Source of the DNA: Thermosynechococcus sp. HN-54
GTDB lineage: Bacteria; Cyanobacteriota; Cyanobacteriia; Thermosynechococcales; Thermosynechococcaceae
Length of the DNA stretch: 64,000 nucleotides
Reading direction: 5' to 3'
Assembly: GCF_023650955.1 (NCBI RefSeq)
Contig: NZ_CP098039.1
Location: 1,178,001 to 1,242,000 of the forward strand
The position numbers and the translations under genes were made by a program. The notes beneath the pieces are model-generated. The model worked only from the letters and a program-made list of their open reading frames with translations. It was not told the DNA's origin and did not search any database. Every line of letters starts with the position of its first letter. The stretch's first letter is position 1. Shown in pieces: positions 43,861 to 53,521 of this stretch.

Positions 43861-44205
43861 CGTATAGAAAGCGCAGTGCCCTATTCTACCTCTAAAAGTA
43901 AAATGCCAGCTCCCCTTAGTAGTAGAGAAAGGAAGCCAGCATTCTACAGAATATTAAAGGAGATTTAAGGTTAAGGTCTATATGGGCTGACCTCAATTGA
44001 ATACCCCTATCATGGCATCACTTCTTGGCAGGGGCGGCTTCCCTAATCTTTTCTTTATATTTATGTTGCAAAGGTCTGATCTTTCGTTACATGTCTTAGA
44101 GTTTCGCAGTATTGTCCTGAAAACTCCCCCGTCTTCGTCACAAGAAACGCCCCTAAATCCCGTAGTATTAAGATGTATGTCGCAAATCTTAAAAATTTCT
44201 GAGGT
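43861..44205. other. Intergenic region between sfsA and rubA
   Basis: Carries the divergent promoters of sfsA (minus) and rubA (plus). A 70-codon frame at 43997-44209 overlaps the rubA start but shows no recognisable protein features and lacks a good ribosome-binding site. I see no RNA gene or clear operator. AAGGAG at about 43958 is not followed by a usable frame. Confidence 0.4.
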
Positions 44206-44541
44206 ATGACCGCCGAAACCCCTGATGTTGCGCCCTTAGATCGGTTTGAGTGCCGTGCCTGCGGCTACATCTACGAACCCGCAAAGGGAGACGAAAATCG
44301 CTCGATTCCGCCGGGAACTGCTTTTGCTGATCTTCCCCTGAACTGGCGGTGTCCGGTGTGCAGTGCCCCCAAAAAGCAATTTAGCAACATTGGACCGGTG
44401 GGATCTCCCTCCGGCTTTAAGGAAAATCTCAACTATGGTTTCGGTGTGAATCGCCTCACCCCCGGCCAAAAGAACATCCTCATTTTTGGTGGTCTTGCCC
44501 TTGCCGTTCTTTTTCTACTGAGTTTCTATAATGTTCGCTAA
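44206..44541 (+). CDS. rubA: Membrane-anchored rubredoxin RubA
   Basis: A 111-residue protein with a rubredoxin domain (ECRACGYIYEPAKGDE, then LNWRCPVCSAPKKQF), giving the two CxxC pairs that bind one iron, a linker, and a C-terminal transmembrane helix (NILIFGGLALAVLFLLSFY). This form is specific to oxygenic phototrophs and is needed for photosystem assembly. The stop overlaps ycf48 by 11 nt, a conserved pairing for PSII biogenesis. In this window psbEFLJ does not follow. Confidence 0.94.
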   Translation: MTAETPDVAPLDRFECRACGYIYEPAKGDENRSIPPGTAFADLPLNWRCPVCSAPKKQFSNIGPVGSPSGFKENLNYGFGVNRLTPGQKNILIFGGLALAVLFLLSFYNVR

Positions 44542-50571: not shown

Positions 50572-50772
50572 AGCACTGCCAGCAATACTCTAGTTTCTCT
50601 ATAAGATTACCGTAGTTTTGAGGGCTTGTGTTTTTGTCAATCCGGTCAATCCCCTCTCAACAATCCTTAGTCACAGTCAAACCCATGAATGACGCTACTC
50701 CTCGTCAAGATGATCGTCTAAGAGACTTGTCATAGCCCCTAGACGCTTGCTAGAATTATGAAGCACTTTCAG

Positions 50773-50845
<73 letters not shown>

Positions 50846-50862
50846 TCGGCCCCAAAGGGCGC

Positions 50863-51540
50863 CTTGTTTCGCTCCTACCGAGTGCCACAGAAATTATTGC
50901 TGCCCTAGGATTGACACCGTTTCTTGTGGGGCGCAGCCATGAATGCGACTATCCGCCAGAGGTCAAGGCATTACCTGTTTGTACACGGCCAAGGTTAGAT
51001 GCACAGCAGTCGAGCTTAGCGATTGATCGGGCGGTTCAAGGCCTCCTGCGATCCGCATTGGGCATTTATGACTTGGAACTGGGCACTTTGCAAACACTAA
51101 AACCCACCCACATCATTACCCAAGATCAGTGCGATGTTTGTGCGGTAACCTTTGCAGAAGTCCAGCGGGCGATCGCCAGACTCTTTGAGCCACCACCGCA
51201 GTTAATTTCCCTCCAACCCCATTGCCTTGAGGATGTCTGGCAGGATATTCGGCGGGTGGGTCTTGCCCTCGGTGTCTCTCCCGACCCCCTACTGAATTCG
51301 CTACACACCAGAATTCATGCCTGTCAAGCATGGGTGAGCGATCGCCCGCGGCGGCAAGTCGTAACCATTGAATGGATTGACCCCCTCATGGCCAGTGGCA
51401 ATTGGGTACCGGAATTGATTGCCCTCGCGGGGGGTGAAAATGTCCTCGGTACAGCAGGAAAACATTCCCCCTACATTGAGTGGTCAACACTGCTGGCGAT
51501 CGACTCAGAGGTAATCATTGTCATGCCCTGCGGCTTTGAC
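50863..51540 (+). pseudogene. Cobalamin/siderophore ABC binding-protein (BtuF-like), 5' part
   Basis: From codon LVSLLPSATEI at 50863 the frame shows a periplasmic-binding-protein fold of the helical-backbone (BtuF/FecB) group: GLTPFLVGRSHECDYPPEV, PTHIITQDQCDVCAV, ISLQPHCLEDVWQDI, VVTIEWIDPLMASGNWVPEL and VIIVMPCGFD. No ATG, GTG or TTG in frame exists between the tRNA-Phe gene and the conserved start; the only in-frame starts are inside or before the tRNA (ATG 50758). An IS200/IS605 element splits the gene after Asp at 51540. No signal peptide is present, so it may act in the cytosol or be defective. Confidence 0.85.
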
Positions 51541-51589
51541 CAAAAACATTGGGATGCAAGCCCCGTCCTGCTACGCACGACCTAACGGT

Positions 51590-51994
51590 CTACAAGGACG
51601 GCTTTTTTTGATTTCTCATGTACTCAATCAGCACCTTGATAGGGGCACCGCCAACCGACACGGCAAAGTAACTGGGACTCCATAGGGCAGCTTTGCCGTG
51701 AGGCTTTTTGTATCCAGCCTGTCCATACCGTCTACTGGAAACCCCTTTTAGGGCATTCACGATTTTTGATATAGACAACTTTGGTGGATACTCAATCAAG
51801 GCGTGGATGTGATCAGACTCCCCGCTGATTTCCAAGATCTCGAAATTCATCTGCTTTGCAACGTGCCGGAAGACTTCTTCTATGAGCACAAGCTCTTCAG
51901 CAGAAAACACATGTTTTCCATCCTTGGTTACACAGACCAAGTGAGCCCTTAAGTCTGTAACGCTGTGCCTTTCCCGCCTAAAACTTATTGTCAT
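51590..51994 (-). CDS. tnpA: IS200-type HUH transposase TnpA
   Basis: A 134-residue Y1 single-strand transposase. The HUH pair is H62-I-H64 in SDHIHALIEYPP and the nucleophile is probably Tyr125 in VLIEYMRNQ. SPSYFAVSVGGAPI is the usual block before it. ATG 51994 (MTISFRRERHSV) is preferred over the frame from 52144, whose N-terminal half runs into tnpB. It should cut and join single-stranded transposon ends at the hairpins. Confidence 0.93.
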   Translation of the reverse strand: MTISFRRERHSVTDLRAHLVCVTKDGKHVFSAEELVLIEEVFRHVAKQMNFEILEISGESDHIHALIEYPPKLSISKIVNALKGVSSRRYGQAGYKKPHGKAALWSPSYFAVSVGGAPIKVLIEYMRNQKKPSL

Positions 51995-52044
51995 AGATGC
52001 TAGGCCAAGTATAATATGAGCACAGACCAATTCTACCAACCCCA

Positions 52045-53217
52045 GTGAAAGTCCGATACCAGTACAGAATCTACCCAACTCTAGGGCAACAGGCCAAACT
52101 TGCCCGGCTGTTCGGTTGTTGTCGTGTCGTCTGGAATGATGCACTGGCGTTAATCAAATCAATCCCAAAGGGCGAGAAGTGGCCAAGCAATACTGAATTG
52201 CAGAAGCTCTGTATCACTCAGGCCAAGAAGCTGGAGGGGCGGAAATGGCTGTCAGAAGTTAGCAACATTCCCTTGCAGCAGTCGATCCGAGACCTAGCAG
52301 CCGCCTTGAAGAACTTCTTTGAGTCTCGGAAAGGGAGGCAGGTTGGATTCCCTCGCTTCAAGAAGAAAACCAACGAGCAGTCCGCGCGGTTCACGAGAGG
52401 CGGTTTTGCAATCAAGGGGAAGAAGGTTTACCTCGCCAAGATGGGTGAAGTCAAAATCAAGTGGTCTAGACCGCTGCCCGCTGAACCGAGTTCTGTGACA
52501 GTCATCAAAGACTGCGCTGGACGATATTTTCTCAGCTTTGTGGTTGAGGTTGAACCTGTTCACATCGAACCTAAGAACCAAGGGGTCGGCGTGGATTTGG
52601 GATTGGAAACGCTCGCCACATTGAGCACGGGTGAAAAGGTGAAAGCGCCCGACACCAGTGCGTTAGACCGCAAACTCCGTAAAGGGAAGCGCAAACTTGC
52701 CAGAGCAGTAAAAAGCTCAAAGCGGTACGAACGGTTGCGGATTGCGATTGCTCGTATTGAGTCCAAACAGCGTCATATACGCAAGGACTTCAACCAAAAG
52801 CTGGCAACTCGTTTAGTTCGAGACAACAGCGTGGTAGTGCTGGAAGACTTAAATGTCTCTGGCATGATGAAAAATCGGCGGCTGGCAAGAGCGATTCATC
52901 GAGCGGGCTGGCGGCAAATCAGAACGATGTGTGAGGCCAAGGGCAAGATGATTGCAGGGCGGGAAGTGAGAACCATCAACCGATGGGAGCCAACTTCTCA
53001 GGTCTGCTCTTGTTGTGGGTATCGATGGGGTAAGTTAGACCTCTCGATTCGGTCTGTAGTTTGCCTAAACTGTGGGGCTGAACACGATAGAGATGAGAAT
53101 GCTAGCAAAAATATTGAGGCGGCAGGACTATGCCGACCTGAATGGGCGGACGCTAAGCAGTGTAAGACCTCCGTGGAGGCAGTTGCTTGTCCGCCTACCC
53201 GTCAGGAGTCAGCTTAA
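52045..53217 (+). CDS. tnpB: RNA-guided endonuclease TnpB
   Basis: A 390-residue TnpB, the ancestor type of Cas12. The RuvC catalytic residues are present: D184 in [13 protein letters not shown]267 in [11 protein letters not shown] and the final Asp in [11 protein letters not shown]. The zinc finger is C321-x2-C324 and C340-x2-C343. Start is GTG 52045. The N-terminal helical domain ([20 protein letters not shown]) is intact. It should use an RNA made from the 3' end of the element as guide, cleaving DNA next to a TTTGAC- or TTGAC-like motif. Its start is 51 bp from that of tnpA. Confidence 0.94.
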
Positions 53218-53286
53218 TGCTGGCAGACTGGGAATCCTCGCGCCTTTAGGCCGAGGAGGATGTCAACTCGAACGCACCCGTCAAGA
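53218..53286 (+). ncRNA. Predicted 3' end and guide of the TnpB omega-RNA
   Basis: In this family the guide RNA is made from the end of tnpB plus the right end of the element. Here it would run through the right-end hairpin (53235-53257) to 53266 and then into flanking DNA. The guide would be about 16-20 nt from 53267, reading CTCGAACGCACCCG, which belongs to the interrupted BtuF-like gene. The 5' limit, inside tnpB, cannot be placed by eye. Confidence 0.4.
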
Positions 53287-53521
53287 ACTTAATCAAGCCG
53301 TGCAAACCTATCCCCAGTGGCAGCAACTGCGTGCCCTGCAAACAGGTCAACTGTATATTGTTGATGGCAATGCCTATTTCAACCGCCCCGGCCCGCGCTT
53401 AGTGGATTCCCTTGAAATTCTCGTCGAGATTCTCCACCCGCCCCAAGAACCGAAATTTCAAGGCGTGGGTTGGCAACCCTACCGCCCTTTTCACAAAGAT
53501 CGCACACGCTCAAAGCCGTGA
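53267..53521 (+). pseudogene. BtuF-like binding protein, 3' part
   Basis: The 84 codons continue the interrupted gene in the same frame: [40 protein letters not shown] and [15 protein letters not shown] are the usual C-terminal blocks of these binding proteins. Joined to the 5' part, Asp at 51540 is followed by Leu at 53267 with no lost codon. By itself the fragment has no start signal, so it is not expected to be made. Confidence 0.88.

What the first reader, a model, noticed from the sequence alone, without database searches (positions are those of the whole stretch)
50863..53521. BtuF-like gene split by IS200/IS605, with target motif and TnpB guide readable from the sequence
The element sits between Asp (51540) and Leu (53267) with no duplicated or lost base. 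The left flank TTTGAC gives the target motif, thus the predicted TnpB target-adjacent motif. The first bases of the right flank (from 53267) would be the TnpB guide, so this copy is predicted to cut the uninterrupted btuF-like allele and so favour its own retention. All catalytic residues of TnpA and TnpB are present.
Basis: partly seen in the sequence, partly recalled or inferred. Interest (0 to 1): 0.7.

Follow-up and report, generated by a model that had tools for sequence, protein, structure and literature searches.

The report
Guide-carrying jumping gene splitting a gene
A bacterial jumping gene of a well-known kind (IS200/IS605 with the RNA-guided cutter TnpB) has landed cleanly inside a vitamin-binding-protein-like gene of a Thermosynechococcus-type cyanobacterium, and comparing it with relatives shows that the short DNA word it targets, the DNA guide that chooses that word, and the cutter residues that probably read it tend to change together.

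Summary
Confirmed: a 1,726-bp IS200/IS605-family element (51541-53266; Y1 TnpA on -, TnpB on +) interrupts a BtuF-like ORF exactly between Asp and Leu. Eight congeners carry the uninterrupted allele and align gaplessly across the junction, so no base was duplicated or lost. Catalytic residues of TnpA and TnpB are present, and a conserved, covarying omega-RNA fold (53118-53266) runs straight into the right flank.

Corrected: the target motif is the tetranucleotide TGAC, not TTTGAC. It is set by the left-end DNA guide CAAG. Across 40 distinct insertion sites guide and target bases pair at both variable positions, 40/40 (TGAC/CAAG, TTAC/AAAG, TTAT/AAAA, TCAC/GAAG, TCAT/GAAA). A T before TGAC is only a preference (16/26).

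Unexpected: TnpB residue 74, aligned to the ISDra2 lysine that reads TAM base -3, is Asn in 24/28 elements with G at -3 and 0/27 without; a loop aligned to residues touching base -1 tracks that base 55/55. On a tree all informative independent switches agree (5/5, 4/4), too few for significance alone.

The element is an ordinary member of a known kind; its retention mechanism is already described for ISDra2. No RNA or cleavage was measured. "BtuF" is only a similarity.

The parts
50863..51540 (+). 5' part of the interrupted BtuF-like (Peripla_BP_2) ORF; start codon uncertain (congeners mostly ATG one codon earlier, here GGG)
51537..51540 (+). Target motif / predicted TAM TGAC (left cleavage site CL)
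51541..53266 (.). IS200/IS605-family element, 1726 bp
51557..51560 (+). Left-end DNA guide GL = CAAG, 5' of the hairpin foot; pairs with TGAC
   Evidence: covariation with target in 40/40 insertion sites
51563..51601 (+). Left-end hairpin (IPL), stem CCGTCCT/AGGACGG
51590..51994 (-). tnpA, 134-aa Y1 HUH transposase (H62, H64, Y125, Q129)
52045..53217 (+). tnpB, 390-aa RNA-guided nuclease (D184, E267, D350); N74 aligns with ISDra2 K76
53118..53266 (+). Predicted omega-RNA (reRNA) scaffold overlapping the tnpB 3' end and the right end
53232..53235 (+). Right-end DNA guide GR = GAAT, followed by the right hairpin
   Evidence: sequence; same as IS608 GR (PMC5934647)
53263..53266 (+). Right cleavage site CR = TCAA; stands where the TAM would be, so the filled site lacks a TAM
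53267..53282 (+). Predicted 16-nt TnpB guide CTCGAACGCACCCGTC, taken from the right flank
   Evidence: position by analogy with ISDra2 (PMC8612924); target adjacency shown
53267..53521 (+). 3' part of the interrupted BtuF-like ORF

Best explanation
This is an apparently intact, autonomous IS200/IS605-family 'peel-and-paste' element. TnpA inserted the single-stranded circle 3' of TGAC inside a BtuF-like gene; the target was chosen by base pairing with the left-end guide CAAG. The transcript through the tnpB end and right end is processed to an omega-RNA whose 3' guide is copied from the right flank. When TnpA later excises the element, the re-formed joint TGAC-CTCGAACGC... becomes the only TAM+target match and TnpB cuts it, so repair from a filled sister copy restores the element. 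Shown here: clean insertion, protein families and catalytic residues, guide-target code, conserved RNA fold. Inferred from ISDra2 and IS608: transcription, processing, cleavage and retention. In the wider cyanobacterial clade, target word, TnpA guide and TnpB TAM-reading residues appear to switch together.
For: Eight gapless empty sites; a second copy at G000:864535-865916 also sits in a site that is uninterrupted in congeners. Y1_Tnp and TnpB families; ISDra2 TnpB and IS608 TnpA structures as best natural solved homologs. GL/CL pairing 40/40 at both variable positions; 20,000 shuffles reach at most 31 and 38. Omega-RNA: 17 of 45 pairs with both-sided changes, 0/500 shuffles, slid controls 1-7; model hits abut tnpB or a right end in many cyanobacterial loci. 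No TAM-adjacent guide match in the genome within 3 mismatches; the only hit is its own right end, preceded by TCAA.
Against: No RNA-seq, excision or cleavage data. The other copy of this element in the genome lacks most of tnpA, so recent activity is not demonstrated by near-identical copies. The TAM of this TnpB is inferred from the insertion motif, not measured. Four TGAC elements of divergent subgroups have Ser, not Asn, at residue 74.
Confidence: 0.88

Rival explanations
1. A dead relic: the element inserted long ago and neither TnpA nor TnpB is active now.
For: Only one copy of the full element in the genome; the 92% copy lacks most of tnpA. The host ORF lacks the usual ATG.
Against: Both ORFs are intact with all catalytic residues; ends, guides and hairpins are intact; both gene halves are still open with dN/dS 0.14 and 0.30 against the nearest species, so the insertion is probably young.
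Confidence: 0.08
2. The TnpB-guide unit has been put to another use, e.g. as a guided regulator, rather than retention.
For: TnpB-derived regulators are known from the literature (own knowledge).
Against: RuvC D-E-D triad intact; tnpA and both ends retained; no other TAM-adjacent match to the guide in the genome within 3 mismatches.
Confidence: 0.02
3. The link between TnpB residue 74 / loop 49-53 and the target word is only shared ancestry, not co-adaptation.
For: Few independent switches: 5 and 4 informative pairs, sign tests 0.0625 and 0.125; four TGAC elements with Ser74.
Against: All informative independent pairs go the same way with none opposed; the positions align with the ISDra2 residues that contact exactly those TAM bases (PMC10097598); the pattern seen in one sample recurred in a mostly non-overlapping second one.
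Confidence: 0.3

Closest known systems
ISDra2 (Deinococcus radiodurans), TnpA + TnpB
   Same: Same gene content; TnpB homologous over residues 5-363 (9e-56) with the same RuvC triad; RNA from tnpB 3' end plus right end with a ~16-nt flank guide; motif doubles as TAM (PMC8612924).
   Different: Target TTGAT there, TGAC here; residue 74 Asn instead of Lys76; no Tyr52/Ser56 equivalents (Q53 loop), in line with C instead of T at -1.
IS608 (Helicobacter pylori)
   Same: TnpA is the closest solved natural homolog (1.6e-16); tetranucleotide target read by a left guide 5' of the hairpin; right guide GAAT and right cleavage site TCAA identical (PMC5934647).
   Different: Target TTAC/guide AAAG there; TGAC/CAAG here (a natural counterpart of the engineered retargeting).
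PATE-like ends-only elements (e.g. Halanaerobium hydrogeniformans)
   Same: L152 and L154 carry the omega-RNA/right end without tnpB, as in PMC7290912 (left-end hairpin + last 58 nt of tnpB + right end).
   Different: In related cyanobacteria, not in this window; omega-RNA fold conserved without the protein.

Membership tests
IS200/IS605 family (IS605 group, tnpA + tnpB) | Y1 HUH transposase with HUH motif and catalytic Tyr | tested here: met
   PF01797 5.3e-32, NF033573 112 bits over cut-off 55; H62, H64, Y125
IS200/IS605 family (IS605 group, tnpA + tnpB) | Insertion 3' of a short motif with no target duplication | tested here: met
   Gapless empty sites in 8 congeners
IS200/IS605 family (IS605 group, tnpA + tnpB) | Subterminal hairpins with guide sequences pairing with the cleavage sites | tested here: met
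   GL/CL covariation 40/40; GR GAAT/CR TCAA as in IS608
TnpB RNA-guided nuclease (OMEGA) | RuvC D-E-D triad, zinc finger, OrfB domain | tested here: met
   over cut-off for NF040570 guided_TnpB (298 vs 100 bits), below the stricter NF038281 (307 vs 425)
TnpB RNA-guided nuclease (OMEGA) | Structured RNA overlapping tnpB 3' end and right end, running into a flank-derived guide | tested here: met
   Conserved covarying fold reaching the element end; its expression was not testable
TnpB RNA-guided nuclease (OMEGA) | TAM-dependent guided cleavage | not testable with these tools
   No biochemical data
BtuF vitamin B12-binding protein (interrupted gene) | BtuF equivalog score and BtuCD partners | tested here: not met
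   25 bits vs cut-off 234 for the 5' half; the only FecCD-type hit in the genome is weak (33 bits) and looks ZnuB-type by eye

The most novel reading that the evidence does not exclude
In cyanobacterial IS200/IS605 elements one specificity code is written three times and switches as a unit: the target tetranucleotide, the left-end DNA guide used by TnpA (GL1 pairs with target base 2, GL4 with base 4), and the TnpB residues that read the same bases as TAM (residue 74 for base -3: Asn with G, Ser/Ala/Val with T or C; loop 49-53 for base -1: Tyr/Phe..Ser with T, Gln with C). This would be sequence-level evidence for the proposed co-evolution of TnpA and TnpB specificity and a natural code for TnpB TAM preference.
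Probability: 0.6. Interest if true: 0.55.

Novelty: new member of a known kind. Interest (0 to 1): 0.42.

Why it matters
The element itself adds one well-documented case with its exact empty site, guide and motif. More useful is the comparison: that TnpA and TnpB co-evolved to use one motif has been proposed (PMC11043419), but the papers I could search do not show it residue by residue. Here nature supplies repeated switches with close relatives on either side (for example TGAC/Asn against TCAC/Val at about 75% TnpB identity), which makes the TAM-reading residues of a compact nuclease directly testable. The host is probably polyploid, a setting in which TnpB gene-drive behaviour, shown for multicopy plasmids (PMC11870625), could matter; that is inference.

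Tried and rejected
TTTGAC as the motif: rejected; position -5 is T in 16/26 TGAC sites and -6 shows no clear preference. A viral contig (L226) with an exact 22-nt match to motif plus guide: rejected as a homolog; the match lies in a phage gene coding for the same short peptide (DLERTRQ) and the contig does not otherwise align with the window. Rfam: no family covers this omega-RNA, only tRNAs hit. A loose left-end pattern search gave mostly noise and was replaced by a stricter one that leaves the tested bases free. Left-end calls for L190 and L357 were judged false and L326 has a frameshifted TnpB; all three were left out of the tree. No structure prediction was run: solved ISDra2 structures already give the contacts.

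Full report
What is there. Window 51541-53266 is a 1,726-bp element of the IS200/IS605 family in a 2.7-Mb cyanobacterial genome (window = G000:C1:1178001-1242000). tnpA (51590-51994, minus) is a Y1 transposase and tnpB (52045-53217, plus) an RNA-guided nuclease homolog. The HUH histidines and tyrosine of TnpA and the D-E-D triad and zinc-finger cysteines of TnpB are in place.

Clean insertion. The ORF halves at 50863-51540 and 53267-53521 join in frame as ...[14 protein letters not shown].... Eight genomes of the same genus have the uninterrupted allele, and all align to the joined flanks without a gap at the junction. The nearest (L044) is 93% identical and reads GGCTTTGACCTCGAACGCAGCCGTC. 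A second copy in the genome (864535-865916, 92% identical, most of tnpA missing) likewise lies in a site that is uninterrupted in all ten other members of the genus searched, gapless around the junction in the five alignments that were printed.

The motif. Left flanks of related copies end in TGAC whenever the four bases before the left hairpin are CAAG, and in TTAC when they are AAAG (one of the G028 copies, L132, reads TCAC and is an exception). I then scanned all fetched loci with a pattern that leaves target bases 2 and 4 and guide bases 1 and 4 free: 40 distinct insertion sites fall into TGAC/CAAG (26), TTAC/AAAG (7), TTAT/AAAA (3), TCAC/GAAG (2) and TCAT/GAAA (2). Both variable positions pair in 40/40; the best of 20,000 shuffles reached 31 and 38. 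The scan requires T and A at target bases 1 and 3 and AA in the guide, which does not touch the tested bases. With the target left wholly free, 53 of 58 loci with a TnpB still show one of the matched pairs; two of the five others were judged false left ends, and two more (TGGC/CAAG, GTAT/AAAA) still pair at both tested positions. This is the IS608 rule (PMC5934647), seen here as natural variation.

The RNA. The last 149 nt of the element fold well (with the guide, -67 kcal/mol, z -2.45). In nine related right ends, 17 of 45 consensus pairs show changes on both sides (0/500 shuffles; slid controls 1 to 7). A model built from them finds matches at the tnpB end or right end of many cyanobacterial loci (the nine build sequences match by construction). 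Two of the nine (L152, L154) have no tnpB upstream, so protein coding does not explain their pairing. The guide would begin at 53267; the 16-nt length is taken from ISDra2 (PMC8612924).

What it would cut. Within three mismatches, the own genome holds one match to TGAC plus the guide region: the element's own right end, where TCAA stands in place of TGAC. The donor joint after excision would be a perfect target. Among congeners the motif TGAC is kept in five of eight alleles (TGAT or CGAC in the rest), and the nearest allele has one mismatch at guide position 11. So the retention model of Karvelis et al. (PMC8612924) applies directly; cutting of other species' alleles is uncertain.

The interrupted gene. 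The 5' half matches Peripla_BP_2 just above its cut-off (33.1 vs 27.5 bits) and BtuF only far below (25 vs 234); being a fragment it scores low in any case. The genome's only FecCD-type hit is weak and looks ZnuB-like to me (not tested further). Two of eleven genus genomes lack the gene. dN/dS against the nearest species is 0.14 and 0.30 for the two halves, so the ORF was under constraint until recently. In the sister the ORF starts with an ATG right before RLVSLLPS; the window has GGG there, and three other species have GTC, CCC and ATC, so either a different start is used or the start has been lost.

The unexpected part. Grouping TnpBs by target word showed residue 74 (window numbering) as Asn in all TGAC elements with an in-frame alignment there, and Ser/Ala/Val otherwise. 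By the alignment it corresponds to ISDra2 Lys76, which bonds base -3 of the TAM (PMC10097598). TTAT and TCAT elements mostly carry Tyr/Phe and Ser where ISDra2 has Tyr52 and Ser56, which touch base -1, while C-ending ones carry Gln in that loop. A second sample of 100 loci, mostly non-overlapping with the first, repeated this with four exceptions (Ser with TGAC). In the combined set of 55: -3 G with Asn74 24, -3 G without 4, other base with Asn74 0, other base without 27; base -1 T and the Ser-type loop agree 55/55. The loop rule was worded after seeing the sequences. On a tree built without those columns, independent pairs agree 5:0 (two uninformative) and 4:0, and guide with target 7:0. The first two are too few to be significant alone, and the tree is a quick one with some weak branches.

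Verdict. The element is a new member of a known kind. The three-way co-switch is the part worth pursuing; I found no residue-level account of it in the papers searched, a library that lacks most subscription journals.

Noticed in passing
L152 (G015:C15, about 44128-44275) and L154 (G049:C13): Right ends with the full conserved omega-RNA scaffold but no tnpB upstream; in L152 a left-end-like sequence (TTGAC|CAGTGAA...CAAG) directly precedes it, giving a mini-element of roughly 200 bp that could use TnpA and TnpB in trans.
   Followed up: partly
50758-50875: The BtuF-like ORF begins directly after tRNA-Phe (50773-50845). The sister species has an ATG there but the window has GGG, and three congeners have GTC, CCC or ATC, although dN/dS stays low; a non-ATG start or a tRNA-linked transcript may be involved.
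   Followed up: partly
G028:C1 (13 loci, L122-L134): One congener carries a dozen copies of a related TGAC/CAAG element with near-identical ends at different sites, which suggests recent activity there.
   Followed up: partly
G000:C1:864535-865916 (L065): Second copy in the own genome: left end, tnpB and right end kept, most of tnpA deleted; its guide (AAACTTGGTG...) differs from that of the window copy.
   Followed up: yes
G000:C1:1882322-1883398 and 1935064-1936140 (L003, L004): Two further intact tnpB genes of a distinct subfamily (41% identical) in the same genome.
   Followed up: no
L333, L336, L340, L346: TGAC elements whose TnpB has Ser at residue 74 and a changed QQ motif (VQ or IQ); they may read base -3 in another way.
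   Followed up: no
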